Both the position numbers and the translations under genes were made by a program. The notes below the pieces were generated by a model. It had not been told where the DNA came from, did no database searches, and worked only from the letters and a program-made list of their open reading frames with translations. Shown piece by piece: positions 1,286-17,255 of a DNA stretch of 20,336 bases. This DNA is from a virus. Position 1 is the stretch's first letter; each line of letters opens with the position of its first letter. The stretch covers positions 1 through 20,336 of IMG/VR virus record IMGVR_UViG_3300042198_000011; one strand, written 5' to 3'.

Positions 1286-4200
1286 ATGAGTTTTCAGTTT
1301 AATTCCGATAGAGAACAAATCAAAGCTACTAATCCTTCTCTAATCGGTAGTAATGAATTAACGATTCGTTCTGGTTCTGGATCTAATGAAAAAGAGGTTC
1401 TAAGAGCACAACTTGACTCAGTAACTACTTTGCCTCGCATTGGTATTAATAGAACTGGTAATAGAATTGACAGAATTGTTGTAACATCACAAGGTTCTGG
1501 ATACACATTACAACCAACAGTTACTTTATCGGCACCTCCAAATGGTGGAGTACAGGCTCTTGCTTCTGCTGTAATTAGTGATGGATCTGTCGTAGCAATC
1601 TTGGTTGATAATATTGGGCGTGGATATACATCTGCTCCTTCTGTAACTATTACTGGTGGTAATGGACAAGGAGCTGCTGCGACTGCTTTTCTTGATACTG
1701 TTGATTTTGAACTTGATATTAATGGTGCTATCAGAACATCCACTTCTATCATTTCTGATACGGCAAGAATTCTAAATCTTGATATTGACAATTTTGTTAC
1801 TCCAGATGCTCAGTTTAGAGCACCAAATTTAAAAACATACTTGAACTCTGGTGGTACTCCATGGGCTGCGGGAGTTATCATACAGCAAAATCAATATCGT
1901 TATCATAATACAAATGTTTATCAAGCATTAAATACTGGAACTCTTGGATCAACTCCTCCACAACATACAGATGGAATTGAGTTGAATGGAGAGGTTCAGT
2001 TAAAACATATTGGTATTAGAGCTGTTGATTCAAATAGACCATATTTCAATCAGGGTGGTCAAGCAGGAATTTTCCCAAGATCTATTACTCCATCATTTGG
2101 TGATAAGTCAGATAAAATTGCTACTACAGAATACGTTCTCAATCTTGCTACAAATGACGTTGGTGGTCGCATTTACGTTTCAGAACAAATTGGTTCTGAT
2201 TTAAATGATGGTCGTTCTGCTGTTAATCCAGTTAGAACTATCAAAAAAGCAGCACAATTAGCTTGGACAACTCCAGGAGTAAAGGAAACAATTGTTGTTT
2301 CTGGTGGTGATTATGTAGAAGACAACCCAATTTCACTTCCTCCAGATGCTTCAGTTGTTGGTGATAACTTACGTCTTGTTATTATTAGACCAAATAATCC
2401 ACGTAAGCACATCTTTAAGTTTGGAGACAAAAACTACGTAACTGGTGTCACATATAGAGATAAAGTTGATTCTAATGGTGATCCAGTCGCCACTTGGGAT
2501 TACGCGATGGTCTTTGATGACAAACAGCGTATTGAGATTGATGTAACAGCAAATGGTGATTATGGAGTTGATTTCCCAGTTGGTCATCAAATTTTTGGTC
2601 CAGAAAAATTCCGTGCTACCTATCAAACTAACACTGGATTATCTCAATTAACGGCTGGACAAAGAGTAAGAGGTGTTAATACTGGTGCTATTGGTCTTTT
2701 GACCGATGTAACATTTACTAGAACTACTGGAGCTAGTGCTTATGTAAATGGTACTGTTGATTTTACTGTTATTAGCGGTAGCTTTAATGCGGGTGAAACA
2801 TTCCAATATGGTGGTATTGGTTCGGTAAGTTTTGCTCCAAATACTGCTTATACATTAGGACAGTTGGTTTGGACTGGTGATAATGTTTATACTATAACAA
2901 CTGCTGGTACTTCAGCATCTTCTGCTCCATCTCATACTACTGGTGCTGTTACGAATGGAACCGCAGTATTCACATTTTTAAGAGCAGCATACGAATTTAT
3001 TTCAACTGATATTATTTCCATCAGAGCAGAAGGAGAAGTAGTATTCATAAATGAAGATGTAACTTCCGCTTTACCAATTGTAAGAATTGATTTCTCAAAA
3101 CAAGGTGATCCAGAAGTTGCTACTGGTGGTTTTGGAGATTATGGAACACCAGAAGATCTTGGTGGTATTGTATTCTATACAAATGCTCTGGTTGGAAGAC
3201 AAAATACTCATAACTTTAAAGAAGGTCAGGAAATCTTTATTTCAAACCTTCCAACATCATCACCAGATCTTTCATTTCTAAATGGAAAACAAAGAATTTA
3301 CAAAGTTATTGAAGATGCTGATGGTAGAGCGAGAAGATTTGTCATTCCAAAGAAAACTACAGTAACTCTTGATTCAAACTTTGATCCAGGTCAGTTTGCT
3401 AATGTAAAATCATATTCAAAATCAATTACTCTATCTCTACTAAACTCACCAAACAAATTCCCAGTCGCAACTCCAGTAGCAAGAAGATACCAAGATGCTT
3501 GCTTACAGATTAGAAACAATATTGACTTCATCGCTGATGAAGTTGTAAGAAAAATCAATGATCAATTTAAGAGAGAATATTTCCCTGTATATGGAATTAG
3601 TGGTGTTCAATTTAAAATATATCTAGGACCATCATCATTCGCACATACTTATGTAAGTGGTGGTACAGTAACATTTAATGGAACTGCTTACAATATAACT
3701 GGTTTTACATATGATAATGTTGTTACTGGAGAAGCAACGATTACAACATCAATTCCAGTTGCTTCTCTAGTAGAGGATAGTGTCGTAAGACTTGCTGGTA
3801 TTGTTGTTAGTTGCGTTATAAATGGAGTAACAACTCAAAAGACGTATCCAAGCTTTAATATTCCAGTAAGCGATGCTAAGTGCCGCAGAGACATCGGTCA
3901 CTTCCTAAATGCTATTTGTAGAGATTTGGAATTTGGAAGTAACTACAATGTAATTGATGCGGCAAAGAAATATATTTCTGCTGGGCAAATTGATCTTGTA
4001 GATTACGAGATTATTCAAACTGTTCGTGCTATTGAATATGCCAGAGAGTTAGCAATCTATGCGATGAGAAAGTGGAGAACCAAAAATGGAGCTCCTTCTG
4101 ATCCAATTTACACTCCACAGTATTCTTCAGTCACACGTTACTTTGATCCAACTGTAATTGATGATTTGGTATCACCAGCATGTGCTAACGTAGCATCTGC

Positions 4201-7200
4201 TATTAATACACTATCATATCTGTTTGTTGATGTTCTCACAAATAATGCTTCTGGAACTTATCTAGATGGTGCTTATCTAATTGCCAGAAACAGAGATCTA
4301 ATCGCAGATCAAGCATATCTAGCAACTAAAACACAATATCCATCACTTGGTTTATCAAATCTAAACGAAAGCAAGTGCCGTAGAGACATTAACTATATCA
4401 TTGATGGTTTGTTAAGAGATCTCGTTCTTGGTGGAAATGCTGGTATTGTTACTGCTGCCGAATCATATTTTACAAACACAGTACTTACTGGAATTCCAGA
4501 AGCACAAAGAGATGAAACAATCTATGCTTTCAATCAAGTAAGAGATTTAACCATTCAGGCAATTCGTAACTGGAGTGGTGGTACAGTAGCAACAAGAACT
4601 CCAACTGGTGCTACATACAACGCAACAACTGGTGTTCTAACAGTTACTTTCCCAAACCCAACAACTCCAGTTACAACTGCCCATAGACTTGCCTTTAAAG
4701 AAGGAGCATTAACATTCAGTTGTACTTCTGGTAGTGGTGGAAATCTAGCAAGTCCAACACCAACAGATCGTAACTATGGTAAGAGTTTAACAATCACCAA
4801 TGTATCAACTGCTGGTGGAAATACCACTGTTACAGTTAATGTTGGAGATGCTGGAACAGCATCTGGAGCAACTCACACATTTGTAAGTGCCCTAGCAAAT
4901 GGAACTATTATTATCTACAACCCAGTTACATCTGCTCTAACTTCACCAATACCAAAATATGAAGATTGGAATATCCTACTGTCATCAGAAAGTCCTCTTT
5001 GTGCTAACGTTGCTTCTTCAATCACAACTTCATTTACACTTCTAGAAGATATTTTAGATGGTACTATTGCTCCTGGAGCAACGACTAAAAACTTTGGTAC
5101 TTTGTATAGTACAGTTGGAATTGTAACTTATCCAGATAGTACAATTTATGACGCAGATGGTGTAATTTATACTCCACGTTCAGATTATGATGATTATCCA
5201 ATTATTGAAGCTTCTCCATATACACAAAACGCATCGGTAATCTCATTCTTAGGTGGAGGCGGTGCTCTTATTGATGGATCTAAAGTCAAACAACCAAACT
5301 GCCCATTCCCTGGTCTAGAACTTGATGGTTCTGCTACTTTCCCAAATCAGGGTAAGTCAATGGTTGCTGCTGCTTTCACCATTGTTTCATTTGGTGGAAC
5401 TGGATACAGAATTATCAATGATGGTTATGTACAGTTAGTTTCTGTATTCGTTATTTTCTGTACTGATGGTGTGTTAGCAGAAAGTGGTGGATATGCTTCT
5501 ATTACAAACTCTGCTACCAACTTTGGTATCTTTGCTTTGAGAGCAACTGGATACAATAGTTTTGCTTATTCTTTTGACGTTGGAACAATTACCAATGTTT
5601 CTTCTACTCCAACTGGAAGAACTATCTTCACTATTGATGGTCTTGGAAGAGAACCACTTGAGCACTATGTTGTCAAAATTGATGGATATGAAAACGTAAA
5701 TCCAGAAATTGAGTATTATATTGATACAGTTGGAGCAGTAACAGTTGGACCTCCTTTCTCTGCTCAAGTAACAATTGAATCAGGATCTGGTGGTCCAGCA
5801 GAATTTAAGTCAATTGCTACTGGACAAGCAGTTTCTAATTCTACTTTGACTGGTAAAACAATTAGATTGCGTCGTCCATCTATTGTCAATTCATCATCAC
5901 ACACTTGGGAATTTGCTGGATCTGGTACAAACTATAATGCTCTACCAGAAAATGGCGGTGTCAAAATTGAGGCATATGAACAAGTTTCCGAAAACTATGG
6001 TAGAACATATGTTTCTGGTACTGATGAACTTGGAGACTTTAAGGTTGGTACATTCGCAAGAATTGAAAACAGAACTGGTAATATTACCTTTACTGGTACG
6101 GTTACCATCTCAGAAGTTGAATTCCTCAAACTGAAAGGTGGAGACGTTGTTGTTACTGGATTTGACGCTTCTAATACTCTTGGCGGTGCTAACTCAACCG
6201 ACTCCAAACTGCCAACTCAGAAAGCAGTTAGGGACTATATCACAAATAACCTCGGTCCATACATCAATAAACCATACTCCACAAACGCTGTTCCTAGGGC
6301 GCTTGTAGAACTTACGGACAGTGGTAAGATCTCTATTGATCAGATCCCACCACTCAGACCATTCAGTGTCTTTACTGTTGCGGATCAGGCAGCTCGTCTT
6401 GCGATTGAAGGTGCTCTTGCTGGAGATATTGCTATTCAACAAGATACATCTGCTTCATACATTCTGAATAATGACAATGCGAGTTTATTTGTTTCATTCA
6501 ATGTGGATCCAACTCTACAATTCACTGCTAATGATGTATTTACTGGTAGTATTTCTGGTGGTAAAATTCAAGCAACAGAATATCGTCAAGGTGTAGTTTA
6601 TCAGATTAATATTACAGATCCAGGATCTGGATACACATCTGCTCCAGTAATTACAATTACTGGAGGAACTCCACAGGCAGGTTCTGTACCAGCATCAGCA
6701 ACATGTACAATTGCTAATGGTCAAGTTGTTACTGTTACAATTCAAATCTTTAATGGATTTAGAGGTGGTAAAGGATACACAACTCCACCAACAGTGACAT
6801 TTTCTGCTCCATCTGGTGCTGGAACACAAGCAACTGGTGTTGCTTTAATTGAAAGCAGATTGTATGGAAATATTGTTAATAACATTAAGATAACTGAAAC
6901 CGACACAATTCAGTCAAGTGACATCCCAGCAGAAACTATTAACATCAATAGAGTTGTAAATACTTCTGCTTCAAATAATAACAATTGGGTATCTCTTTCC
7001 ACTAACCAGATTGCTGCTTCTGATATTACGTCTGGTGTTATTGCCACATCAAGATTAGCAAATAACTCAGACGCTGCTAACTCCTTCACATTCCTTCGAG
7101 GAGATCAAGCATATGCTCCAGTTGTCCAATCAATTAAGGGAGCAGAGAGTAGATATTTCGCTAAATTATTCTCGCAGGCAAACAGTGGATCTTCGCAACT

Positions 7201-10200
7201 ACTGTTTACTACTAACTCTAATACATTAGTTGGTCACGAAGTAGTCAATAATATTACAGGAATTCAAGCAAATACCAACATTTCTGGTGTTGTTACTTCT
7301 GCTGGTATTACAACAGTAGCACTGAATAATCCTTTAACATCAACTCTTGCTGCTGGAACAATTATTGAATTTAGAAGAGGTGCCTCTCCTCTTGTATTTG
7401 AATCATCATTTACACAGGGAGGATTTGTTGATAACGTTGTAATTGCTAGCGGAGGAAGTGGATTTACAAATGGACAATATTTTGATGTTCCACTATCTGG
7501 TGGATCTGGAACTGGACTAAGATCCAATATTATTGTTACCAATGGAGCAGTAACAGAAGTAACTGTTACAAGTTCTGGAACAGGATATACAGCAGACTTT
7601 AACGTTTCATCAGCTCCAGCAGAAATTGGCGGTGGATCTGGACTTGTTCTTGCTGCTAAAATTAATACTGTTAGCAGACAATATGCCAATACATCTCTTG
7701 ATATTCAGAGAGTAACTGATCTTACAATTTCAGCAGATGAATTTGGTACAATTGGTGTTGCCAGATTTAAAAAATCTCAATTCCTGATTGGTCAATCTGG
7801 TAATGGTTCTATTGTTCTCAAGACAGGTGCTGATAGTGGTCTTGATGCTGACCTTCTTGATGGAGCACAAGGTTCTTACTATCTAAATGCTTCAAACTTA
7901 AACTCTGGTACAGTATCTGTAGATAGACTATCTGGAACATATAACATTAGTATTTCTGGTCAGTCTGGTAATACAATTCGTCTTCTTTCAAATACAACAA
8001 ACCCAACATCAAATCCTTCCCCAAATGCTTTCTCTGTTGGTATTGTTGCTGATACAAGAAATAATTCTGCCAATGGTTTGTCTGATGGTGGTACAAAAAA
8101 TATTGTTCTTTCTATCAGACCTGGCGGATCTGGATTTACTGTAGATGGTGGTGTAAAACAATTAGCATTTACAGACAACGATAACATGTGGTTACGTGGT
8201 TCTGGAACTGCGGTTGATACATTTGGTTCTTGGGCTAAGGTTTGGACTTCTCTAAATGATGGTCCTGGTACTGGTCTTGATGCCGATAGACTTGATAATC
8301 GTCAAGGCACTTGGTTCCAGAATGCCATCAATATGAATTTTGGAACTTTAAGTGATAATCGTTTGCCATCGTATCAAACCAGAAAAGATTTTCAAGACAC
8401 AGTAAGAGTTTTATCATTTACTGGACAACCAAGATATAGAATTTATATTCCAGATGAAACTTTAACGGCATCACCTTTCCTACCTGGATTGACAGTTAAT
8501 CTTTACAATTCTCTAGATCAGGGAACTGGTGTTATTTCAATTACAGATGTTACTGTAAATAATGATACGAATGATCCTTTTAATAACTATACAATTATTA
8601 CTGGTACTTTAACAACTGGTAATTTTATTGGCGCAACTAGTATTGGTATTACATCAAACAAAAAAGCATTTAGAGACTTTAGTATTGCTACATTAGATTC
8701 TAATGCTGATGGTATTCCAGATGGATCATTCGTTGCTGCTACTCTTGAGAGCGATGGTGGAACTGCCAATCTAAGACTTGGTAGAAAAGATGGTCAGGCA
8801 TCTTCACCTGGACTATACTTCAACTCATCAACACTTGCTGCTACCTATAATGCTGCTATCGTAGCTACTGGTGGTAATGGATCAACTTCCAGCGGTACTC
8901 TGGATGTCAAGGTAGTAAATGCTAATGGATTTACTCTAAATGGCAATACAATCTGGAACGCTGGTAACGTAACATTCAACAGCACAAATGTTGTTTCAAC
9001 TGCTGTTATTCGTGATGCTTCTGGTAACTTTGCTGCTGGAACAATCACAGCAAATCTAACTGGTGCTGCTTCAGCAAACGTTCTGAAAGCTGGCGACACT
9101 ATGACTGGTTCGCTAACCCTAACTGGTGCTGGAAGTAACCTAAGTGTTTCTGGAACTCTTGGAGTTACTGGTAATACTACATTAACTGCCAATCTTATAG
9201 TAGATACAAACACATTATATGTACAATCTACAGATAATCTTGTTGGTATTGGATTGGTGCCAAGCACAGCAGCATCCACAAATAGCAAACTTCAGGTATA
9301 TGGTGGAACTCTTGGTTCTACAGATGAAAGCAAATTGTATCTTGCTTCATTTGAAGCAGCAGTATCAAATTACAGTAGATTATTGATCTATAATAGAAAG
9401 TTCAATACAACTTTCACAGATTGGAGATCTGCTTCAACTAGAATTCAACAAAGAATTGATGTAACAGATCAAGCTTATATTGAGTTTAACCCAGAAGGTT
9501 CTGAATATGGACTTGCTTTGGGAACTCAAAATAATGAATCACTAAGATTAATTCAAACTGGAGAAGTTGGCATTCGTAAAACTCCTTCTACTGGATACAA
9601 TCTAGATGTTTCTGGAAAAGGTAGGTTTTCAACTTCATTAGAAATCCGTGATGCTTCTGATAACTCTGGAGCATCTATGTTGTTCCTTGGTTCTTCTGGT
9701 TTTAGAAACTTTAGAATTGGTAACCAGTTAGTTGGTAATGATATTTTTGAGATTACACCTTCTACTGCTGCTGGTGGGTCAACATGGGCAACAACTCCAG
9801 CGTTAGCAATTCAGGGTTCTACAAGTAGAGTTGGTCTTGGTACAACTACATTTAGCAGCACTGCTACAGGCGCTACTGTAAATTACCAACTTAATGTCCA
9901 AGGTAACATTAATATCAATGGTACTGTTTATCAAAATAATCTACCATTCGTTACTTCGAGATGGACTCAATCCACAAATGGAACAGACATTCATAGATTG
10001 TCTCGTGTTGGAATTGGTGTTGCTGATCCTACTTGGACTTTACAAGTTGGTGGATCTGGAAATAATGGTTTAAATATTCAGGGAACAAACTTCAGTAGTG
10101 GAGTAAATAATTCTGTTCTTTATGCTAATGGCGATAGACAATGGTTAGACAGTTTTGGTATATTTAAATCAAATAGAAATAATGTTTCGGAAAATGTTAC

Positions 10201-10300
10201 TATTCCAAATGGAGCAAACACTTTATCATCTGGGTCTATAGTTATAAATAGTGGAGTTACAGTGACAGTTCAAACTGGTGGTACTTGGAATATAGTATAA
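1286..10300 (+). CDS. Giant tail-fibre-like virion structural protein, 3004 aa
   Basis: A single uninterrupted 9-kb gene. Approximate layout by residue: 64-135, a pair of GxGYT beta-repeats; 290-380, a pectin-lyase-like start (GGRIYVSEQIGSDLNDGRSA; then GGDYVEDNPISLPPDASVVG), which suggests a parallel beta-helix; 734-1260, helical segments with CRRD at 866 and 1031 and CANVAS at 966 and 1239; 1320-1420, a Gly-rich segment; 1642-1740, a conserved LPTQKAVRDYI region; two further GxGYT pairs near 1780-1830 and 2056-2097; 2187 and 2331, LDAD(L/R)LD fibre repeats; 2600, AGDTMTGSLTLTGAG, a common fibre motif; and short VGIG repeats up to a beta-rich C-terminus. No S74-type chaperone end is visible. 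It probably forms a long trimeric fibre or fibre-like baseplate part contacting the host. The long-fibre role is inference; the structural nature is fairly sure. Confidence 0.9.
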   Translation: MSFQFNSDREQIKATNPSLIGSNELTIRSGSGSNEKEVLRAQLDSVTTLPRIGINRTGNRIDRIVVTSQGSGYTLQPTVTLSAPPNGGVQALASAVISDGSVVAILVDNIGRGYTSAPSVTITGGNGQGAAATAFLDTVDFELDINGAIRTSTSIISDTARILNLDIDNFVTPDAQFRAPNLKTYLNSGGTPWAAGVIIQQNQYRYHNTNVYQALNTGTLGSTPPQHTDGIELNGEVQLKHIGIRAVDSNRPYFNQGGQAGIFPRSITPSFGDKSDKIATTEYVLNLATNDVGGRIYVSEQIGSDLNDGRSAVNPVRTIKKAAQLAWTTPGVKETIVVSGGDYVEDNPISLPPDASVVGDNLRLVIIRPNNPRKHIFKFGDKNYVTGVTYRDKVDSNGDPVATWDYAMVFDDKQRIEIDVTANGDYGVDFPVGHQIFGPEKFRATYQTNTGLSQLTAGQRVRGVNTGAIGLLTDVTFTRTTGASAYVNGTVDFTVISGSFNAGETFQYGGIGSVSFAPNTAYTLGQLVWTGDNVYTITTAGTSASSAPSHTTGAVTNGTAVFTFLRAAYEFISTDIISIRAEGEVVFINEDVTSALPIVRIDFSKQGDPEVATGGFGDYGTPEDLGGIVFYTNALVGRQNTHNFKEGQEIFISNLPTSSPDLSFLNGKQRIYKVIEDADGRARRFVIPKKTTVTLDSNFDPGQFANVKSYSKSITLSLLNSPNKFPVATPVARRYQDACLQIRNNIDFIADEVVRKINDQFKREYFPVYGISGVQFKIYLGPSSFAHTYVSGGTVTFNGTAYNITGFTYDNVVTGEATITTSIPVASLVEDSVVRLAGIVVSCVINGVTTQKTYPSFNIPVSDAKCRRDIGHFLNAICRDLEFGSNYNVIDAAKKYISAGQIDLVDYEIIQTVRAIEYARELAIYAMRKWRTKNGAPSDPIYTPQYSSVTRYFDPTVIDDLVSPACANVASAINTLSYLFVDVLTNNASGTYLDGAYLIARNRDLIADQAYLATKTQYPSLGLSNLNESKCRRDINYIIDGLLRDLVLGGNAGIVTAAESYFTNTVLTGIPEAQRDETIYAFNQVRDLTIQAIRNWSGGTVATRTPTGATYNATTGVLTVTFPNPTTPVTTAHRLAFKEGALTFSCTSGSGGNLASPTPTDRNYGKSLTITNVSTAGGNTTVTVNVGDAGTASGATHTFVSALANGTIIIYNPVTSALTSPIPKYEDWNILLSSESPLCANVASSITTSFTLLEDILDGTIAPGATTKNFGTLYSTVGIVTYPDSTIYDADGVIYTPRSDYDDYPIIEASPYTQNASVISFLGGGGALIDGSKVKQPNCPFPGLELDGSATFPNQGKSMVAAAFTIVSFGGTGYRIINDGYVQLVSVFVIFCTDGVLAESGGYASITNSATNFGIFALRATGYNSFAYSFDVGTITNVSSTPTGRTIFTIDGLGREPLEHYVVKIDGYENVNPEIEYYIDTVGAVTVGPPFSAQVTIESGSGGPAEFKSIATGQAVSNSTLTGKTIRLRRPSIVNSSSHTWEFAGSGTNYNALPENGGVKIEAYEQVSENYGRTYVSGTDELGDFKVGTFARIENRTGNITFTGTVTISEVEFLKLKGGDVVVTGFDASNTLGGANSTDSKLPTQKAVRDYITNNLGPYINKPYSTNAVPRALVELTDSGKISIDQIPPLRPFSVFTVADQAARLAIEGALAGDIAIQQDTSASYILNNDNASLFVSFNVDPTLQFTANDVFTGSISGGKIQATEYRQGVVYQINITDPGSGYTSAPVITITGGTPQAGSVPASATCTIANGQVVTVTIQIFNGFRGGKGYTTPPTVTFSAPSGAGTQATGVALIESRLYGNIVNNIKITETDTIQSSDIPAETININRVVNTSASNNNNWVSLSTNQIAASDITSGVIATSRLANNSDAANSFTFLRGDQAYAPVVQSIKGAESRYFAKLFSQANSGSSQLLFTTNSNTLVGHEVVNNITGIQANTNISGVVTSAGITTVALNNPLTSTLAAGTIIEFRRGASPLVFESSFTQGGFVDNVVIASGGSGFTNGQYFDVPLSGGSGTGLRSNIIVTNGAVTEVTVTSSGTGYTADFNVSSAPAEIGGGSGLVLAAKINTVSRQYANTSLDIQRVTDLTISADEFGTIGVARFKKSQFLIGQSGNGSIVLKTGADSGLDADLLDGAQGSYYLNASNLNSGTVSVDRLSGTYNISISGQSGNTIRLLSNTTNPTSNPSPNAFSVGIVADTRNNSANGLSDGGTKNIVLSIRPGGSGFTVDGGVKQLAFTDNDNMWLRGSGTAVDTFGSWAKVWTSLNDGPGTGLDADRLDNRQGTWFQNAINMNFGTLSDNRLPSYQTRKDFQDTVRVLSFTGQPRYRIYIPDETLTASPFLPGLTVNLYNSLDQGTGVISITDVTVNNDTNDPFNNYTIITGTLTTGNFIGATSIGITSNKKAFRDFSIATLDSNADGIPDGSFVAATLESDGGTANLRLGRKDGQASSPGLYFNSSTLAATYNAAIVATGGNGSTSSGTLDVKVVNANGFTLNGNTIWNAGNVTFNSTNVVSTAVIRDASGNFAAGTITANLTGAASANVLKAGDTMTGSLTLTGAGSNLSVSGTLGVTGNTTLTANLIVDTNTLYVQSTDNLVGIGLVPSTAASTNSKLQVYGGTLGSTDESKLYLASFEAAVSNYSRLLIYNRKFNTTFTDWRSASTRIQQRIDVTDQAYIEFNPEGSEYGLALGTQNNESLRLIQTGEVGIRKTPSTGYNLDVSGKGRFSTSLEIRDASDNSGASMLFLGSSGFRNFRIGNQLVGNDIFEITPSTAAGGSTWATTPALAIQGSTSRVGLGTTTFSSTATGATVNYQLNVQGNININGTVYQNNLPFVTSRWTQSTNGTDIHRLSRVGIGVADPTWTLQVGGSGNNGLNIQGTNFSSGVNNSVLYANGDRQWLDSFGIFKSNRNNVSENVTIPNGANTLSSGSIVINSGVTVTVQTGGTWNIV
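1475..1691 (+). repeat. GxGYT beta-repeat pair 1 (in giant protein)
   Basis: Two linked motifs about 42 residues apart: QGSGYTLQPTVTLSAP and GRGYTSAPSVTITGG. Each is followed by a Gly/Ala-rich turn and a strand. The pair near 6605-6858 matches it closely at the protein level and partly at the DNA level (GGATAYACATCTGCTCC is shared), so duplication within the gene is likely. Confidence 0.7.
3872..4580 (+). repeat. Duplicated helical CRRD module (in giant protein)
   Basis: Copy A begins DAKCRRDIGHFLNAICRDL at 3872 and copy B begins ESKCRRDINYIIDGLLRDL at 4367. The CRRD cysteines (residues 866 and 1031) are 165 residues apart. Each copy continues with a short A-rich helix and ends in a basic-Trp segment (AMRKW, AIRNW). 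Each is followed later by a CANVAS helix, at 4181 and 5000. A weaker third relative (DACLQIRNNIDFIADEVVRK) lies near 3496. The copies share runs such as AAGTGCCG and TGTGCTAACGT. Confidence 0.7.
6605..6858 (+). repeat. GxGYT beta-repeat pair 2 (in giant protein)
   Basis: Motifs PGSGYTSAPVITITGG and GGKGYTTPPTVTFSAP are about 49 residues apart, again separated by an Ala/Ser-rich strand and a turn. The order and spacing copy pair 1, about 1700 residues away in the same protein. Confidence 0.7.
7430..7665 (+). repeat. GxGYT beta-repeat pair 3 (in giant protein)
   Basis: Motifs SGGSGFTNGQYFDVPLSGG and SSGTGYTADFNVSSAP are about 41 residues apart. The Pro-x-Val-Thr part has diverged compared with pairs 1 and 2, but the Gly-x-Gly-aromatic-Thr core and the spacing are kept. 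Confidence 0.6.
10243..10250 (+). promoter_or_regulatory. Exact T4 late promoter TATAAATA inside the giant gene's 3' end
   Basis: TATAAATA is identical to the T4 late consensus. It lies 48 nt before the end of the giant gene and 60 nt before the ATG of the first adhesin gene. A start about 6 nt downstream would give a leader of roughly 50 nt for the adhesin cassette. It is the only exact TATAAATA I found in the window. Confidence 0.55.
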
Positions 10301-10302
10301 AG

Positions 10303-10310
10303 AATAAATA
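10303..10310 (+). promoter_or_regulatory. Late-promoter-like AATAAATA at the adhesin start codon
   Basis: AATAAATA ends on the A of the ATG at 10310. If active, transcription would start inside the coding region, so it could not give the full protein from this ATG. It may instead be chance in AT-rich DNA. The exact TATAAATA 60 nt upstream is the better promoter for this gene. Confidence 0.25.
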
Positions 10311-11167
10311 TGGCAACTTCAAAATTAACAGCTGGTAATATAAATCCTTCTTCTGGTCTTGTCATTCCTGTTTTGGATAATGACCCAGGAGATGGTACTA
10401 TTGGGGAATTGGTGTATGTAAATGGACGTTTAAAGTATTTTGATGGAACTCAATGGTATTGGATAGGTGACACTAAAGGTGGTCTTGCTGTTACGAGTAA
10501 TTTAATTCTAAGACTAGATGCTAGTGAGGCCACTTCATATCCAGGATCTGGAGGAGTATGGTATGACCTGAGTGGTGCTGGTAATAACTTTAATGTTAAT
10601 TCCACTGCTTATAATTCTAGTGGAAAATATTTTGATTTTAATGGAAGTTACGGTTGTGCTAAAAATAGTAGTGATATTTCATTATCTGGTGATGTTACCT
10701 ATGTTGCTGTAACTAGAGTTAAAAATAGTACAGCAGAATGGAGAACATTAACTAGATCATATTCTAGTGATCACCATGTAATTATTCAGTCTGGTGGTTG
10801 GAATATTGGCATGTACGATAATGATGGTGCTGGGTTTATCGGCACTGGTTATTCTCAGCAATCCTTGCCAGGATATTCTACCAATACATTTGATGTACTG
10901 TGTTGGAGATGGAACGCTACAAGCGATTCTCCAACATATGATCTCAATGTAAATGGTGTACAAAGAGGGACAATTAATAATTCTAGCGCTAGATATAATA
11001 GAGGTTTTGGATCTATTGGTGCTTATCATAATGGAAATACCGATGTAAATAATGCTTCTCAATGGTGGGGAGATATTAAATTTTTTGCTGTTTATAATCG
11101 TCGCTTAACTGATACTGAAGTACAATCAAATTATACTTCTCTAAAAACAAAATTTGCTACTAACTGA
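10310..11167 (+). CDS. Adhesin-like virion protein with LamG/ConA-like domain, 285 aa
   Basis: Residues 1-55 form a short anchor-like module ending IGELVYVNGRLKYFDGTQWY. It follows the same G-x-L-x-Y...Y-x-G-x-x-W pattern as the N-termini of the next two genes. Residues 64-285 look like a laminin-G / concanavalin-A-type beta-sandwich: LILRLDASEATSYPGSGGVW, then WYDLSGAGNNF and YFDFNG, and near the C-terminus GDIKFFAVYNRRLTDTEVQ followed by NYTSLKTKF, the usual closing strand and helix of that fold. Such domains bind glycans, so a receptor-binding role at the fibre tip or baseplate is likely. No cleavage site or membrane segment is visible. A weak AAAGA precedes the start. The fold is fairly sure; the ligand is unknown. 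Confidence 0.85.
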   Translation: MATSKLTAGNINPSSGLVIPVLDNDPGDGTIGELVYVNGRLKYFDGTQWYWIGDTKGGLAVTSNLILRLDASEATSYPGSGGVWYDLSGAGNNFNVNSTAYNSSGKYFDFNGSYGCAKNSSDISLSGDVTYVAVTRVKNSTAEWRTLTRSYSSDHHVIIQSGGWNIGMYDNDGAGFIGTGYSQQSLPGYSTNTFDVLCWRWNATSDSPTYDLNVNGVQRGTINNSSARYNRGFGSIGAYHNGNTDVNNASQWWGDIKFFAVYNRRLTDTEVQSNYTSLKTKFATN

Positions 11168-11175
11168 TTGCTATT

Positions 11176-11931
11176 ATGTCTACTATAAACGCTGAAATCA
11201 TTAATATTACAGATAGATTAAAATTACCTGTTTACACAACAGCTCAAAGAAGTGCTCTATCTTCTCCAGTAGCAGGGTTATTAATCTATAATTCTACTAT
11301 AGGAAACATTGAAGTCTATACTGGAACTGCTTGGCAAACAGTTCAGCAAACTCCAGCAGATACAGGTGGAGGAAAAGGATGGTCTATTTCTCAGGGTGCT
11401 GATGGAAGTAATATAACGGGATTTACTAATAATAGTATGCTTCAGTATACTTTAAATACAGATAACCAAGGAGCAAACCAAGGAGCAACAAAACTATCAT
11501 ATTCTTCTGGTTGTCCTGGTGGTAATCAATTCTGTTATCACTCTGGTCACCAAGTTCCAGCGTGGTGGCCAATGTATCATGCTATCCAAGTTACTACAGA
11601 TACAAAAGGAAAGGTATTAAATCAGATTAATTGGCAAACTCATATTAATGCTATTGGTAACGTAGACTTTTTTGGAAGTAATAATGCTATTACAGCAGCA
11701 AATTACACCACAGAAAGTAATTGGACACATCTAGGAAGAGCACATTTTGGTGGATCTGGTGGAGGAAGTAGTGATTGTACGGTTTACACTAGAACATTTA
11801 ATCCAAATAATTATGGTTATCAGTGGTATATGATCAAAGGTGTTGATAACCAGTCATCTCCTGTTGCTTATCCAAATACTGGATCAAGAGGTGGGTGGGC
11901 TATGTATCGTTTAAGATTAAATAAGGTGTAG
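11176..11931 (+). CDS. Adhesin-like virion protein, shared N-terminal module, 251 aa
   Basis: Residues 1-56 carry the anchor module RLKLPVYTTAQRSALSSPVA followed by GLLIYNSTIGNIEVYTGTAW, nearly the same as in the next gene. A short Gly-rich linker (DTGGGKGW) leads to a C-terminal domain of ~185 residues rich in W, Y, N and G. It holds two Cys in CPGGNQFC and a third in SSDCTVYTRTF, and ends GWAMYRLRLNKV. I cannot name this C-terminal fold; it looks like a compact beta-rich globular domain of the size of a lectin. The gene lies 8 nt after the LamG-type gene and has no clear ribosome site, so translational coupling is possible. The role as an alternative or additional adhesin is inferred from the shared module. 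Confidence 0.8.
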   Translation: MSTINAEIINITDRLKLPVYTTAQRSALSSPVAGLLIYNSTIGNIEVYTGTAWQTVQQTPADTGGGKGWSISQGADGSNITGFTNNSMLQYTLNTDNQGANQGATKLSYSSGCPGGNQFCYHSGHQVPAWWPMYHAIQVTTDTKGKVLNQINWQTHINAIGNVDFFGSNNAITAANYTTESNWTHLGRAHFGGSGGGSSDCTVYTRTFNPNNYGYQWYMIKGVDNQSSPVAYPNTGSRGGWAMYRLRLNKV

Positions 11932-11944
11932 GAATTTAATAGAT

Positions 11945-12925
11945 ATGTCTAGAATAAATGTATCATCTTTAGTCTCAACGGAAAGATTAAGATTACCAGT
12001 TTTTACCACAGCACAGAGAGATGCTTTAACTCCAGAAGCGGGAATGCTGATTTTTAATTCAACTATTCAGGAGGTTCAAATTTATTTTGGAAATCCCGAT
12101 AATGGATACAAATGGCAATCCGCTGGAGCAGATTTAGCTCCTATAGCTACTAGCGGCGCAGCGGCTGTTAAAGATGGATCCACATCAGCTTTAGCAGCAG
12201 ATTCGGCAGCAGCAATAAAAACAGTAAAACCAAGTGCTACAGATGGTATTTACTGGATTAACTTACCTACTGTCGGTCCAAAACAAATTTATTGTATTAT
12301 GGATAGTGGATTTGATGGTGGTGGATGGATGATGGCAATGAAAGCAACTAGAGGAACTACTTTTAGTTTTGGATCTAGTTATTGGACAAGCACTAATACT
12401 TTAAATGAAACTGCTTATAATACCTCAGATGGAGACGCCAAATTTGAAACATTTAATAGATTTGCTGCTAAAGATCTATTAGCAGTTTGGCCAGACCTTG
12501 GTGCTAACTCTGGATGTTTTAATACAAGCAGAGGTCACATTTGGTTAGAAAATAATTTTTGGCAAAGTGGAACCAGAATTACATTAACAAGTCTCTTTAA
12601 TACTGCTAATGAATATTTTATTCGTGATGCTAATAACTTCTGTGGTATTGGTCAATTTTCAAGACAAACAGACGTTAGATTTTATGGATTTAATTATTCC
12701 AATGATCAAAACTTAGCAAGAGTTCGTTGGGGATTTGGTTGGAACGAAAATGGAGGCGGTCTTTGGCCAAATGGAAACCAAGGAAGTGATGACGTTGCTG
12801 GCGGTATTGGTATGACTGGTACACAGCAAGGTCAGGTTAATTATTCTGCTGGTGATTTTATTGGATGCTGTCAAAACGTAACTGGTTTCAATAGATCCGC
12901 TAGAGTAGAGGTGTATGTAAGATGA
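11945..12925 (+). CDS. Adhesin-like virion protein with fibrinogen/intelectin-like domain, 326 aa
   Basis: Residues 14-58 repeat the anchor module (RLRLPVFTTAQRDALTPEAG, then MLIFNST and YKWQS). An Ala-rich linker (61-97) follows. From residue 100 the sequence reads DGIYWINLPTVGPKQIYCIM then DSGFDGGGWMMAMKATRG. This is the start of a fibrinogen C-terminal-related domain, in which G-x-Y...Y-C-x-M-D...G-G-G-W is diagnostic. The Gly-rich middle (NGGGLWPNGN, DDVAGGIGM), the CC pair in FIGCCQNV and the end SARVEVYVR recall the intelectin branch, which closes with a similar hydrophobic strand plus YR. Fibrinogen-related and intelectin domains bind sugars in animals, so recognition of host glycans is inferred. 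A TAGGA at 11929-11933 precedes the start. The stop overlaps the next ATG by 4 nt. Confidence 0.85.
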   Translation: MSRINVSSLVSTERLRLPVFTTAQRDALTPEAGMLIFNSTIQEVQIYFGNPDNGYKWQSAGADLAPIATSGAAAVKDGSTSALAADSAAAIKTVKPSATDGIYWINLPTVGPKQIYCIMDSGFDGGGWMMAMKATRGTTFSFGSSYWTSTNTLNETAYNTSDGDAKFETFNRFAAKDLLAVWPDLGANSGCFNTSRGHIWLENNFWQSGTRITLTSLFNTANEYFIRDANNFCGIGQFSRQTDVRFYGFNYSNDQNLARVRWGFGWNENGGGLWPNGNQGSDDVAGGIGMTGTQQGQVNYSAGDFIGCCQNVTGFNRSARVEVYVR

Positions 12926-13290
12926 TTAATATAGATCTCACAGAAGAAGAATTTAATTTAATTATTAATTACAGAAAAGGTAAGTATAATATTGATATTA
13001 CAGAGGATGAATATAACGAAATTGTAAGTCGTCGTAATGGTGCTGTAAAAACATATGTAAAATACATACAAAATATCGAAAAACTAGTCAATCAAGAGAA
13101 TGAATTTGTTTCCGAAAAAGCAGCAATATTTTTAGAAATTGCCAACAAATTACATAACAAAGAAATTGATTTGGAAGAATATACAACAACAGAAGATATT
13201 GTTTATGGTGGGGAAGATGAGGATACGATTTTTAAAATCAGATCTTTGAATTATATTAAAAATGCTATAGCATTACATCATCCAAATTGA
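12922..13290 (+). CDS. Acidic 122-aa protein with N-terminal 20-residue tandem repeat
   Basis: ATG overlaps the stop of the fibrinogen-like adhesin (ATGA) and has AGAGG at 12907-12911, so the two are coupled. The first 40 residues hold two copies of I-D-(L/I)-T-E-(E/D)-E-(F/Y)-N-x-I, each ending in R-(K/N)-G, with a period of 20. The rest is helical and acidic (LEIANKLHNKEIDLEEYTTT, then GGEDEDTIF). There is no membrane segment. I do not recognise a family. Small soluble proteins encoded directly after phage adhesins are often fibre-assembly chaperones (as T4 gp38 and lambda Tfa are), and this one could be similar. That is inference from position only. Confidence 0.75.
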   Translation: MINIDLTEEEFNLIINYRKGKYNIDITEDEYNEIVSRRNGAVKTYVKYIQNIEKLVNQENEFVSEKAAIFLEIANKLHNKEIDLEEYTTTEDIVYGGEDEDTIFKIRSLNYIKNAIALHHPN

Positions 13291-13295
13291 GGTAT

Positions 13296-13303: not shown

Positions 13304-13331
13304 ATCGTACACACCATTACTTGTGATAACT

Positions 13332-13520
13332 ATGGATCCCGCAGCACTAAAGAAAAATTTCGAAGAGCAAATTGCTACTACTGATAAGCAAATTGCTGAA
13401 CTAGAAGAAAACCTCACTAAAGCAAAAGAATACAAGCTTAAGTTACAAGGTGGTCTAGAAACTCTAAGTCTCCTAGAAGAACCAGCAGCAGAAGAAGAAA
13501 CTGCCTCTGAACCTTCGTAA
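13332..13520 (+). CDS. Small acidic coiled-coil protein, 62 aa
   Basis: The ATG at 13332 (MDPAALKKNFEEQIATTDKQ) is preferred over the in-frame GTG at 13323, because the protein resembles short conserved cyanophage proteins beginning MDPAAL. Residues 8-45 are heptad-like and charged (KQIAELEENLTKAKEYKLKL), predicting one coiled coil. The last ~15 residues are a flexible acidic tail (EEPAAEEETASEPS). No strong ribosome site is visible. The stop overlaps the ATG of the oxygenase gene (TAATG), so the two proteins are probably made together. Function is unknown; an oligomerising or scaffold-like structural role fits. Confidence 0.7.
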   Translation: MDPAALKKNFEEQIATTDKQIAELEENLTKAKEYKLKLQGGLETLSLLEEPAAEEETASEPS

Positions 13521-14044
13521 TGATTGAAGTATATGACAATTTAATATCAAAAAATTATCTGAGAGATATTCAAAATTATTTTATTGGTGGAAATGCTCAG
13601 TGGACGTATATGCCATCAATGACGTATGGAAATACTGAAGAAAATATTCAATCTTTTGGATTTAGTATCGGAATTTGCGATCATGGAAATTTCCAAAATA
13701 CTTATCCCGCTACTTTGTTAAAAGGTCTTTTATATCAAATACAAGAAAAAACGAATAAAAATCAAATTTTAAGATCTAGGATTGATATGACTGTTTATAA
13801 TCCAAATAAATATAGACACGAAATTCATATAGATTTGCCAAAAGAAATTGATAATATTACCACTATTTTTTATTTAAATGATAGTGATGGTAATACATTA
13901 TTATATGATTTGAATGATAATGTATTACAAGAAGTCGAACCAGTAGAAAATAGATTATTAGTTTTTTCTGGTGATATACCTCATACTGGTCATTCTCCAT
14001 CAAAAAATAAATCAAGAGTTTTAATAAATACAAACTACATTTAG
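13520..14044 (+). CDS. 2-oxoglutarate/Fe(II)-dependent oxygenase-like protein, 174 aa
   Basis: The sequence fits the double-stranded beta-helix 2OG-Fe(II) oxygenase family (prolyl-4-hydroxylase-like). An H-x-D iron pair is present at His103 and Asp105 in RHEIHIDLP. A distal His lies at 155 in VFSGDIPHTGHSP, and Arg166 in KSRVLINTNY is placed to hold the 2-oxoglutarate carboxylate. The strand TTIFYLNDSDGNTLLYD between them is also typical (YLN...GGxL in relatives). Such enzymes use O2 and 2-oxoglutarate to hydroxylate proteins or small molecules. The substrate here is unknown. The gene is coupled to the small coiled-coil gene upstream, sits between adhesin and neck genes, and ends 3 nt before a terminator, so it is expressed with virion genes. 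Catalytic activity is likely but not shown. Confidence 0.82.
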   Translation: MIEVYDNLISKNYLRDIQNYFIGGNAQWTYMPSMTYGNTEENIQSFGFSIGICDHGNFQNTYPATLLKGLLYQIQEKTNKNQILRSRIDMTVYNPNKYRHEIHIDLPKEIDNITTIFYLNDSDGNTLLYDLNDNVLQEVEPVENRLLVFSGDIPHTGHSPSKNKSRVLINTNYI

Positions 14045-14047
14045 ATT

Positions 14048-14085
14048 AAATCCCTTCTTACTAAATAGGTATGAAGGGATTTTTT
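14048..14085 (+). terminator. Intrinsic terminator before gene 13
   Basis: AAATCCCTTC at 14048-14057 pairs perfectly with GAAGGGATTT at 14073-14082, giving 10 bp around a 15-nt loop, with a T run at 14080-14085. It starts 3 nt after the oxygenase stop. The loop holds CTAAATA, a late-promoter-like motif (see the separate entry). Confidence 0.8.
14060..14067 (+). promoter_or_regulatory. Late-promoter-like ACTAAATA in the terminator loop
   Basis: ACTAAATA differs by one base from (N)ATAAATA and lies entirely in the loop of the terminator hairpin. A late start about 6 nt downstream would fall near 14073, in the second arm. The late RNA for gp13 would then lack the hairpin and keep AGGG (14075-14078) upstream of the ATG at 14093. 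CTAAATA recurs at 20271-20277, just before the gp17 start. Confidence 0.5.
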
Positions 14086-14092
14086 GTGTCTA

Positions 14093-14893
14093 ATGGCAAA
14101 ACCAAGCTCACGATCCGAACTCATCACATACTGTAAGAGGCAGCTTGGTGAACCTGTCCTTCAGATTAACATTGATGATGAGCAGGTCAGTAACGTTATT
14201 GATGATACTATTCAGTTCTTCCAAGAGAACTGCTATAACGGTATGGAGCGTTGCTACCTAAGACACGAAATTAATGCTGATGATAAGACAAGATTGGAAG
14301 GTGAAGTTACAACCACGAATGGAACTACAAATTGGGAAGAGGCAACAAATTATATTCCAATTCCAGATCATGTCGTGGGTGTTAGCAGAGTGTTTGGAGT
14401 GGTTGGAAATAGCATTCGCAGTAATTTATTTGGTATTGAATATCAGATCTTCCTTAATGACCTCTATGCTTTTGGATCACTTGACATTCTGAATTATTAT
14501 ATGACAAAACAATATCTGGAAACTCTGGATATGGTTTTGAACAATGGATCATTTCAACAGTTTAGATACACGATGCGTCGTGATCGTTTGTATCTTGATG
14601 TGGATAAGGATTTTCTACAAGAAGGTCAGTGGTTGTTGATTGAAGCACACCGTCTTGTCAATCCAAATGATGCTACTGAAATGTACAATGATATGTTTGT
14701 GAAGCGTTATGCCACTGCCCTTATGAAAAAGCAGTGGGGGCAGAACCTCATCAAATACAATAATGTTCAATTGCCTGGTGGATTAACATTAAATGGTAGG
14801 CAGTTGTATGAGGATGCGATTGGTGAAATTGAAAAGATAGAGAGTGAAGTCCTCAGTAAGTATGCCGAACCACCTATGGATATGATCGGATAA
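14093..14893 (+). CDS. 13: Neck protein gp13
   Basis: The start is set at ATG 14093 (MAKPSSRSELITYCKRQLGE), not the in-frame TTG at 14084, which lies in the terminator T run. At 266 aa it is close to T4 gp13 (309 aa). The N-terminus S-S-R-S-E-L-I-x-Y-C-x-R-x-L-G-x-P and the following INIDDEQVSNVIDDTIQFFQ are characteristic of gp13 in T4-like phages. gp13 joins the filled head after DNA packaging and, with gp14, forms the neck to which the tail attaches. The next gene starts 1 nt after the stop, as expected for the 13-14-15-16 block. Confidence 0.93.
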   Translation: MAKPSSRSELITYCKRQLGEPVLQINIDDEQVSNVIDDTIQFFQENCYNGMERCYLRHEINADDKTRLEGEVTTTNGTTNWEEATNYIPIPDHVVGVSRVFGVVGNSIRSNLFGIEYQIFLNDLYAFGSLDILNYYMTKQYLETLDMVLNNGSFQQFRYTMRRDRLYLDVDKDFLQEGQWLLIEAHRLVNPNDATEMYNDMFVKRYATALMKKQWGQNLIKYNNVQLPGGLTLNGRQLYEDAIGEIEKIESEVLSKYAEPPMDMIG

Positions 14894-14894
14894 G

Positions 14895-15779
14895 ATGCCT
14901 ACCAGTCCTTATTTTCCTACCTACTATCAAGGTCACCCAGGAGAACAGAACCTGGCACAGGATCTTGCTGACGAACAGATCAAGCTGTTCGGAACAGATA
15001 TCTATTATCTACCGAGGACTATTCTTAGAGATAACACACTTGATGATGTTATCTATTCTAAGTATCAAGATCAATTTCAAGTAGAGATGCTTCTACAGAA
15101 TGTAGAAGGTTTTGGTGCTCAATCAGAATTCATCAGTAAGTTTGGCATTCGTATTACTGATGAAGTAAAATTTATTGTTTCTTCCAGAAGATGGGACCAG
15201 GCGGAAGCACAATACACTCCAACGCTCACTGTTCCTGGAAGACCAAACGAAGGAGATCTTTTGTATTTCCCTCTCACAAAGGATATCTACGAAATCAAAT
15301 TTGTAGAAAGAGAAACTCCATTCTATCAGTTTGGTAAAATTCAGTTTCTGATTATAACTGCTGAGATCTATGAGGTTGGAAATGATCTCATTGATACCGG
15401 TATTGCTGATATTGATGAGATAGAAACACTATTCAGTTCTGCGATATCGTTGGTAATGAATACAGGTGGTACTGGAACATTTACTGTGGGTGAGTTGGTC
15501 ACTGGCGGAACAAGCAATACAGAAGCTACAGTTAAGTCTTGGACTGCTGCTACCAGAACTCTTCAGGTCATCAATCGAACAGGAACTTTTGTAGCGACTG
15601 AAACAATTACTGGCGATGATAGTAATGCTGTATGGGTTCTTGGATCATTTGACACTCTAAATAATACAAACAGCGAATACGATCAAAATAGAGAAATTGA
15701 AGACGAAGCTGATAATATCATAAATTGGACTGAAAAAAATCCATTTGGTGAATTTGGAAATTATACAGGTAGCATCTGA
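14895..15779 (+). CDS. 14: Neck protein gp14
   Basis: The N-terminus MPTSPYFPTYYQGHPGEQNL and the core LFGTDIYYLPRTILRDNTLD, VEMLLQNVEGFGAQSEFISK and FGIRITDEVKFIVSSRRW are diagnostic of gp14, the neck partner of gp13. It is 294 aa against 256 in T4. Much of the excess is a beta-type segment at about residues 184-254 (GTFTVGELVTGGTSNTEATV, then TGTFVATETITGDDS), which reads as an inserted or added domain before the conserved C-terminal acidic segment ending in NPFGEFGNYTGSI. The start lies 1 nt after gp13 and the stop overlaps the gp15 ATG (TGATG), indicating coupled translation. Confidence 0.93.
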   Translation: MPTSPYFPTYYQGHPGEQNLAQDLADEQIKLFGTDIYYLPRTILRDNTLDDVIYSKYQDQFQVEMLLQNVEGFGAQSEFISKFGIRITDEVKFIVSSRRWDQAEAQYTPTLTVPGRPNEGDLLYFPLTKDIYEIKFVERETPFYQFGKIQFLIITAEIYEVGNDLIDTGIADIDEIETLFSSAISLVMNTGGTGTFTVGELVTGGTSNTEATVKSWTAATRTLQVINRTGTFVATETITGDDSNAVWVLGSFDTLNNTNSEYDQNREIEDEADNIINWTEKNPFGEFGNYTGSI

Positions 15780-16582: not shown

Positions 16583-16584
16583 TT

Positions 16585-16998
16585 ATGGAAGACTTAGAAA
16601 AAAACATGGAAAACATTCTGAACATTGAAGTTCAGGATGTTGAATGCTTGCCAAAAAAAGAGGTCGTTGAAAGCATTGATCCTCTTCAAGATAGATTAAA
16701 AGATTATGAATATACGAGAGGAGAATTATACAACCTCATCAGCAAGGGTCAGGAGGCGGTACAAGGCGCTTTAGAGGTCGCACAGGAGAGTGGGCACCCA
16801 AGAGCGTATGAAGTCGCTGTGAACGCCATGAAGCAGGTAGCAGACATGACTGACAAGCTTGTAGATCTTCAGAAGAAAATGAAAGATCTTGATGCGGAGA
16901 ACAAGAAGGTCACAAATGTTACAAACAATGCGATGTTTGTTGGCAGCACCACAGAGCTACAGAAGATGCTCAAACAGATGGGTGGCAACAAAAGATAA
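16585..16998 (+). CDS. 16: Terminase small subunit gp16
   Basis: 137 aa, a little shorter than T4 gp16 (164 aa). The middle YEYTRGELYNLISKGQEAVQ, GALEVAQESGHPRAYEVAVN and AMKQVADMTDKLVDLQKKMK are the conserved gp16 features: a helix-turn-helix hairpin that makes ring oligomers and recognises concatemeric DNA for the gp17 packaging motor. A charged coiled-coil-like segment leads into a C-terminal TELQKMLKQMGGNKR. The N-terminus is acidic and variable. The start follows gp15 by 2 nt. The stop overlaps a late-promoter motif GATAAATA that serves the following genes. Confidence 0.9.
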   Translation: MEDLEKNMENILNIEVQDVECLPKKEVVESIDPLQDRLKDYEYTRGELYNLISKGQEAVQGALEVAQESGHPRAYEVAVNAMKQVADMTDKLVDLQKKMKDLDAENKKVTNVTNNAMFVGSTTELQKMLKQMGGNKR

Positions 16999-17001
16999 AT
17001 A
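16994..17001 (+). promoter_or_regulatory. T4-type late promoter motif (GATAAATA) over the gp16 stop
   Basis: GATAAATA overlaps the gp16 TAA (16996-16998) and precedes the ATG at 17028 by 26 nt. The predicted start about 6 nt downstream lies inside the first arm of the hairpin at 17001-17024. Confidence 0.6.
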
Positions 17002-17024: not shown

Positions 17025-17027
17025 TAT

Positions 17028-17237: not shown

Positions 17238-17255
17238 AATATATGTGGTCGGAAA

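What the first reader, a model, noticed from the sequence alone, without database searches (positions are those of the whole stretch)
10310..12925. Cassette of three adhesins: shared N-terminal anchor, three different C-terminal folds
All three consecutive proteins begin with a G-x-L-x-(Y/F)...Y-x-G...W module, and two share the nearly identical LPV(Y/F)TTAQR(S/D)AL. They then diverge into LamG-like, unassigned and fibrinogen-like domains. This looks like one docking socket with exchangeable receptor-binding tips, a plausible unit for host-range change. It also has its own exact TATAAATA upstream.
Basis: partly seen in the sequence, partly recalled or inferred. Interest (0 to 1): 0.6.

Follow-up and report, generated by a model that had tools for sequence, protein, structure and literature searches.

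The report
Cyanophage adhesin cassette with exchangeable lectin tips
A virus of marine cyanobacteria carries three neighbouring tail-protein genes that share one small front-end module but end in three different sugar-binding-type folds; related viruses show that the whole cassette, and single tips, are exchanged, a likely way for such viruses to change what they stick to.

Summary
Three co-directional genes (10310-11167, 11176-11931, 11945-12925) lie between a 3004-aa tail-fibre gene and the neck gene gp13 of a T4-like cyanophage.

Exchange is shown by comparison. A contig 99.0% identical in DNA over gp13 and the genes after it has an unrelated cassette. In another phage the intelectin-like tip (83% identical) sits on a module of the first gene's type, with a sharp junction at codon 76. 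The module carries 37 tip clusters in the sampled loci. The upstream TATAAATA is a conserved late-promoter-type motif: 42 of 51 loci have NATAAATA there, about 2 expected.

'One socket' is too simple: module subtypes keep a fixed gene order, 19 of 48 slots lack the module, and it also occurs inside another virion protein. The exchanged block also carries the last ~80 residues of the giant fibre and a small coupled gene, probably an assembly partner.

Docking and receptor binding remain inferred. The locus is a known kind (host recognition cluster); the anatomy is a new variant.

The parts
10243..10250 (+). TATAAATA, T4-late-promoter-type motif, coded within the last codons of the giant fibre gene (57 nt before its stop)
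   Evidence: Only TATAAATA in the window; NATAAATA within 150 bp upstream of the first slot gene in 42 of 51 loci vs about 2.3 expected; Ile-Asn-x codons spelt ATA-AAT-A in 10/13 cases in the last 35 codons vs 2/169 elsewhere in the giant genes, Fisher p 2e-12
1286..10300 (+). giant tail-fibre protein (3004 aa); its last ~80 residues lie inside the exchanged block and end in a family-wide C-terminal motif
   Evidence: ORF; DNA homology to L003 stops at 10053; C-termini compared; S-PM2 and others annotated tail fibre
10310..10480 (+). N-module of adhesin 1 (P1-type)
   Evidence: iterated HMM; 57-62% identical to three tandem modules in L083
10496..11167 (+). tip of adhesin 1: LamG/ConA-like
   Evidence: Laminin_G_3 E=1.3e-4, below cut-off; relative L180 12169-13086 in the same cluster at 2.8e-16
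11176..11349 (+). N-module of adhesin 2 (TTAQR-type)
   Evidence: HMM and alignment; AF2
11350..11931 (+). tip of adhesin 2: F5/8C / CBM32 / SUN-like beta sandwich
   Evidence: AF2 pLDDT 83.0; Foldseek PDB best E 5.5e-5 (SUN2), CBM modules 2.6e-4 to 5.4e-4; no Pfam match
11945..12130 (+). N-module of adhesin 3 (TTAQR-type)
   Evidence: HMM and alignment; AF2 pLDDT about 82-94 over residues 1-50
12131..12169 (+). flexible linker; junction at codon 76
   Evidence: pLDDT < 50 at residues 64-71; DNA homology to the L083 chimera starts at nt 226 of the gene
12170..12925 (+). tip of adhesin 3: fibrinogen/intelectin (X-type lectin)-like
   Evidence: NF040941 above cut-off; Foldseek ranks 1-6 are intelectin-family lectins, best E 1.1e-6; profile vs human intelectin-1 E 0.0011
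12922..13290 (+). 122-aa protein overlapping adhesin 3 by 4 nt; probable cognate assembly partner or chaperone of the intelectin-like tip
   Evidence: family of about 30 members found mostly directly behind genes with this tip, mostly with a 4-nt overlap; function inferred
13323..13520 (+). 65-aa conserved protein marking the right edge of the slot
   Evidence: 94% DNA identity to L003; present before gp13 in nearly all complete slots
10054..13295 (.). block with no DNA homology to L003, although the flanks are 78-82% (left) and 94-99% (right) identical: the exchanged cassette
   Evidence: blastn

Best explanation
This is the receptor-contact cassette of a T4-like cyanophage's host recognition cluster. 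Each of three late-expressed tail proteins carries an N-terminal assembly module of about 55 aa that fastens it to the fibre apparatus, most likely the end of the giant fibre encoded just upstream, and a separate lectin-like C-terminal tip that touches surface glycans. Recombination with other cyanophages replaces the whole cassette, from the last ~80 residues of the giant fibre to the edge of a conserved 65-aa gene, and sometimes only a tip behind the module. The 122-aa gene coupled to adhesin 3 is probably its assembly partner. Shown: gene order, module homology, tip folds by sequence or model, whole-cassette and single-tip exchange, conserved promoter motif, conserved pairing with the small gene. 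Inferred: incorporation into this virion, docking on the giant fibre, glycan binding, effect on host range, chaperone role.
For: Locus: conserved between the giant fibre gene and the 65-aa/gp13 genes in dozens of loci. Whole-cassette exchange: L003 is 99.0% identical over 14048-17541, with no homology at 10054-13295; two ACG-2014j isolates (97.7% on the gp13 side) and two S-RIM44 isolates (93.5%) also differ across the slot. Tip exchange: L083 5833-6756 has a tip 83% identical (79% DNA over 759 bp) to P3's, but a module 57% identical to P1's and 24% to P3's; its module is 90% DNA-identical to that of the neighbouring gene, which has a different tip. Breadth: 143 distinct module-bearing proteins in 37 tip clusters. 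Modules follow the genome more than chance: 0.386 vs 0.303 mean identity, 0/2000 shuffles; gp13-slot loci only, 0.332 vs 0.294, 7/2000. Tips are all folds with known glycan binders. Virion and host link: S-PM2's three slot genes carry the module and are annotated virion structural proteins; two of them (S-PM2d089, d090) gained early mutations during coexistence with Synechococcus (PMC9910659). Promoter. Coupled small gene.
Against: No proteomics or binding data for this phage. Docking on the giant fibre rests on gene position and joint exchange; the correlation between giant-tip similarity and cassette content is weak (partial r 0.12). The module also occurs inside another virion protein, so it may be a general fibre-building unit rather than a specific plug. 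The chimera L083 lacks the small partner gene next to its intelectin-like tip. Intelectin calcium and ligand residues were not mapped.
Confidence: 0.75

Rival explanations
1. The N-module is not a docking plug but a generic fibre-building or trimerisation unit; attachment is by another part, and its spread reflects that it folds well in front of any tip.
For: Two internal copies lie in the ~1,250-1,711-aa virion protein upstream of the giant gene in S-PM2, S-H9-1, L003 and L083; 29 PHROG families match the module; a weak match lies at the C-terminus of a solved tailspike subunit, probably phage B2 gp49 (E 0.043).
Against: In 171 of 193 matches the module starts within the first 40 residues; modules resemble each other more within than between genomes although tips differ; subtypes keep gene order. 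These fit position-specific assembly better.
Confidence: 0.35
2. The three proteins form one hetero-oligomeric tip or a chain in which each adhesin docks on the previous one, rather than three independent adhesins on equal sockets.
For: Fixed order of module subtypes: in nine mixed slots all 14 long-leader/short-leader pairs have the long-leader gene first (without L191, about 1 in 3,000 by enumeration); P1-type modules precede TTAQR-type ones in window, L083 and L081. Branched complexes with ordered docking exist in Ackermannviridae (PMC11721090).
Against: The number of module-bearing adhesins per slot varies from 0 to 5, and S-H9-1 has only one, so no partner set is obligatory. Order could simply be inherited positional homology.
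Confidence: 0.3
3. The C-domains are decoration or particle-stability domains rather than receptor binders, and their turnover is neutral.
For: No binding data; many marine phage structural proteins carry LamG or Ig-like domains (general knowledge).
Against: The locus is hypervariable between near-identical phages; the homologous S-PM2 genes mutate early under host coexistence (PMC9910659); three different lectin-type folds share one cassette.
Confidence: 0.12

Closest known systems
Host recognition cluster (HRC) of cyano- and pelagimyophages (PMC7029224)
   Same: Variable island in the structural region ending at the neck genes, with tail fibres and carbohydrate-binding domains such as ConA. 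This cassette lies in that region.
   Different: As read here, that work describes the island and its domains; the passages read do not describe the shared N-module, the tip chimera, the promoter coded inside the fibre gene, or the coupled small gene.
Branched tailspike complex of Ackermannviridae (CBA120 TSP1-4; PMC11721090)
   Same: A cassette of several receptor-binding proteins with conserved N-terminal assembly domains and variable C-terminal receptor domains.
   Different: There the N-domains are gp10-like XD domains on enzymatic tailspikes. Here a ~55-aa module with no such match carries lectin-like tips.
Anchor / conserved-peptide RBP systems of Klebsiella phages (PMC6872550)
   Same: Several RBPs built from re-used N-terminal attachment units and exchangeable specificity domains with cognate chaperones.
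   Different: Depolymerase spikes with T4 gp10-like branch points; no lectin tips; different N-units.
Intelectin / X-type lectin and fibrinogen-related domain lectins
   Same: P3's tip matches by fold (Foldseek ranks 1-6, best E 1.1e-6) and weakly by profile (E 0.0011).
   Different: About 16% identity, TM about 0.5; ligand and calcium residues not mapped; phage virion context.
F5/8 type C (discoidin) / CBM32 modules
   Same: P2's tip has this beta-sandwich fold in the AF2 model (CBM matches E 2.6e-4 to 5.4e-4).
   Different: No sequence match; best-ranked matches are SUN domains; TM 0.3-0.65.

Membership tests
Host recognition cluster of T4-like cyanophages | variable island in the structural region next to the neck genes gp13/gp14 | tested here: met
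   Slot between the giant fibre gene and 65-aa/gp13/gp14 in window and relatives
Host recognition cluster of T4-like cyanophages | content not syntenic between close relatives | tested here: met
   L003, ACG-2014j and S-RIM44 comparisons
Host recognition cluster of T4-like cyanophages | left edge at the VrlC baseplate gene | not testable with these tools
   The window is a 20,336-base fragment that does not reach that gene
Modular receptor-binding proteins (conserved N-terminal attachment + variable C-terminal specificity) | homologous N-module on different C-domains | tested here: met
   37 tip clusters on one module family; chimera L083
Modular receptor-binding proteins (conserved N-terminal attachment + variable C-terminal specificity) | N-module attaches the protein to the tail | not testable with these tools
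   Complex prediction not available; inferred from position and genome-specific similarity
Modular receptor-binding proteins (conserved N-terminal attachment + variable C-terminal specificity) | C-domain binds the host receptor | not testable with these tools
   Only fold class is known
Branched Ackermannviridae-type RBP complex | T4 gp10-like XD domains in the N-terminal parts | tested here: not met
   No such Pfam, PHROG or NCBIfam match in the three proteins
Intelectin (X-type lectin) fold | fibrinogen-like GGGW core and intelectin fold | tested here: met
   NF040941 41.6 bits vs cut-off 30; Foldseek ranks 1-6
Intelectin (X-type lectin) fold | calcium- and diol-binding residues of intelectin | not tested
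   No residue-level structural alignment was available
LamG / ConA-like lectin (adhesin 1) | Pfam Laminin_G_3 above cut-off | tested here: inconclusive
   22.6 bits vs 27.6 for P1 itself; cluster relative 60.4 bits
F5/8C / CBM32 (adhesin 2) | jelly-roll beta-sandwich fold | tested here: inconclusive
   Model matches SUN/CBM modules at E 5.5e-5 to 5.4e-4 with TM 0.3-0.65; no sequence match
T4-type late promoter | TATAAATA (NATAAATA in cyanophages) a short distance upstream of the gene | tested here: met
   67 bp upstream; conserved in 42 of 51 loci; motif definition from PMC2984593

The most novel reading that the evidence does not exclude
T4-like cyanophages use a positional code for adhesins: a family of ~55-aa N-modules with subtypes specific for distinct docking positions, in gene order, each able to carry any of dozens of lectin-type tips. 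Tip, module set, giant-fibre end and an internally coded late promoter then form an exchangeable host-range cartridge shared across cyanophage genera.
Probability: 0.3. Interest if true: 0.72.

Novelty: new variant of a known kind. Interest (0 to 1): 0.52.

Why it matters
Receptor-binding proteins of marine T4-like cyanophages are poorly known, since several T4 fibre genes have no counterparts there (PMC2984593). A recognisable module that marks which proteins carry exchangeable tips, plus a defined slot, makes it possible to list candidate receptor binders across hundreds of cyanophage genomes and to test which tip goes with which host. Natural pairs with near-identical backbones and different cassettes are ready-made experiments.

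Tried and rejected
- Chance motif: rejected; HMM, PHROG, fold and chimera evidence all agree.
- TATAAATA as chance: by count in the window it is unremarkable. Also checked whether the conserved Ile-Asn peptide motif alone explains it: rejected by codon choice (10/13 vs 2/169).
- Lactoferrin matches of P1 (E about 6e-4): taken as chance; short stretch, no fold or domain logic.
- Giant-fibre end as the matched socket of the cassette: only weak support (partial r 0.12, 6/999 permutations); kept as inference.
- First pass of tip clustering merged LamG and intelectin tips through multidomain proteins; redone with coverage limits.
- Gene-order test: S-PM2 (L191) was first counted with a frame that is the cut end of the gene upstream of the giant gene, not a slot gene (14/17 pairs, 377/20000 shuffles). 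Without it 14/14. This exclusion was made after seeing the result, and the loci are not all independent.
- First P2 alignment misaligned the domain onto the module; rebuilt with upstream context.
- P2 profile vs PDB sequences: nothing.
- Pfam on the small partner gene: nothing convincing.

Full report
SETTING. The window is a 20,336-base viral record. Its genes are those of a T4-like cyanomyovirus: a 3004-aa giant fibre (1286-10300), the finding, a 122-aa gene, a conserved 65-aa gene, a 2OG-Fe(II) oxygenase-like gene, then gp13 and gp14. All DNA-similar phage records are cyanophages.

OBSERVATION. The three ORFs exist as described. P2 and P3 N-termini are 56% identical over 50 aa. P1's is more divergent, but an HMM begun from P1 alone recruits P2 in its second round at E=5.7e-4 and then the whole family; one PHROG matches all three. 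P18, G34 and W53 are invariant in a 22-row alignment. AlphaFold2 models of P2 and P3 give the module the same secondary structure: short strand, helix 22-26, three strands.

TIPS. P3: mean pLDDT 87.8; Foldseek ranks 1-6 are intelectin-family lectins (best E 1.1e-6), then ficolins. NCBIfam's fibrinogen-like GGGW model passes its cut-off, and the profile matches human intelectin-1 at E=0.0011. So 'fibrinogen-like' is right, and intelectin-like is more precise. P2: pLDDT 83.0; the best matches are SUN domains and CBM32-type modules, E 5.5e-5 to 5.4e-4, an F5/8C-like sandwich. P1: LamG/ConA-like, weak by itself, supported by a relative in the same tip cluster. All three are folds in which glycan binders are common (general knowledge).

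THE SLOT. 120 loci hold gp13, 64 of them with a long upstream (giant-type) gene in view. Of 48 distinct complete slots, 29 hold one to five module-bearing proteins and 19 hold none. Some of the latter use other small fibre-like proteins, for example triplets of 185-255 aa.

EXCHANGE OF THE WHOLE CASSETTE. L003 is 99.0% identical in DNA over 14048-17541 and 94% at the 65-aa gene, 78-82% over matching parts of the giant gene as far as 10053, and not detectably similar in between. Its slot holds four other module-bearing proteins, with LamG and glycine-rich tips where Pfam names them. Two ACG-2014j isolates and two S-RIM44 isolates show the same pattern. The block takes in the last ~80 residues of the giant fibre.

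EXCHANGE OF A SINGLE TIP. In L083 (gp13 53% identical to the window's) the gene at 5833-6756 has a C-domain 83% identical to P3's. DNA similarity starts sharply at P3 nt 226 (79% over 759 bp). Its N-module is 57% identical to P1's, 24% to P3's, and 90% DNA-identical to that of the neighbouring L083 gene, whose tip differs. L083 also has TTAQR-type modules resembling P3's, one of them on a tip that Pfam calls glycine-rich.

BREADTH AND STATISTICS. 143 distinct module-bearing proteins fall into 37 tip clusters. Between proteins with different tips, module identity is higher within a genome than between genomes: 0.386 vs 0.303, 0/2000 shuffles; slot loci only, 0.332 vs 0.294, 7/2000. This fits adaptation of modules to each phage's own apparatus, or duplication within a genome. 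In nine slots with both long-leader and short-leader modules the long-leader gene always comes first (14/14 pairs once a mis-assigned S-PM2 frame is set aside), about 1 in 3,000 by enumeration if loci were independent. P1-type modules precede TTAQR-type ones in window, L083 and L081.

PROMOTER. TATAAATA is the T4 late promoter and NATAAATA the cyanophage form (PMC2984593). Counted over the window it is not enriched. Across loci, 42 of 51 have NATAAATA within 150 bp before the first slot gene, about 2.3 expected. In many loci it lies exactly 57 nt before the giant gene's stop, coded through a conserved Ile-Asn pair; in others it lies at or just after the stop, where there is room. Ile-Asn-x is spelt ATA-AAT-A in 10 of 13 cases there and 2 of 169 elsewhere in the same genes (Fisher p 2e-12). 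The DNA motif itself therefore appears selected.

SMALL PARTNER. The 122-aa protein overlaps P3 by 4 nt. Its family (about 30 members) sits mostly directly behind genes with the intelectin-like tip, mostly with a 4-nt overlap; S-MbCM7-type slots have two such pairs. The chimera L083 lacks it. A cognate folding or assembly partner is the likeliest role; this is inference.

VIRION AND HOST. In S-PM2 the three slot genes carry the module and are annotated virion structural proteins. Two of them, S-PM2d089 and d090, collected a series of SNPs early in coexistence with Synechococcus WH7803, and the giant gene S-PM2d088 was mutated too (PMC9910659). The basis of the 'virion structural' labels was not checked here.

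LIMITS. No experiment on this phage. Models are monomers. The module also occurs twice inside the long virion protein upstream of the giant gene in four relatives, so 'docking socket' is one of two readings, the other being a general fibre-building unit. The giant fibre's end co-varies only weakly with cassette content.

VERDICT. A real, exchangeable adhesin cassette in a known host-recognition island (PMC7029224): known in kind, with a new and testable anatomy.

Noticed in passing
window 13520-14044: A 2OG-Fe(II) oxygenase-like gene (PHROG labels it DNA endonuclease V) is inserted between the 65-aa gene and gp13; in L003 these two are adjacent and a related oxygenase lies between the adhesins. 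Such oxygenases recur in many slots and may modify fibre proteins.
   Followed up: partly
window 13323-13520: A 65-aa, highly conserved, apparently coiled-coil protein marks the right edge of the slot before gp13 in nearly all complete slots; function unknown.
   Followed up: partly
window 10240-10256 and the same place in relatives: Late-promoter motif coded inside the conserved C-terminal peptide of the giant fibre, with codon choice that preserves it.
   Followed up: yes
L181 11827-14301 (-), L195 2-1861: Two internal copies of the adhesin N-module in the long virion protein upstream of the giant gene; only the last 241 aa of its likely counterpart are in the window (1-726).
   Followed up: partly
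L007 1703-3386, L184, L190 9887-12176, L196, L197: Alternative slot contents without the N-module: triplets of similar-sized fibre-like proteins (185-255 aa) followed by a 107-156-aa gene, some with glycine-rich tips, some followed by tryptophan halogenase-like genes.
   Followed up: no
L083 4705-5828: An adhesin with a Pfam Fibrinogen_C tip is followed by an 81-aa gene with a 4-nt overlap, a second possible adhesin-partner pair.
   Followed up: no
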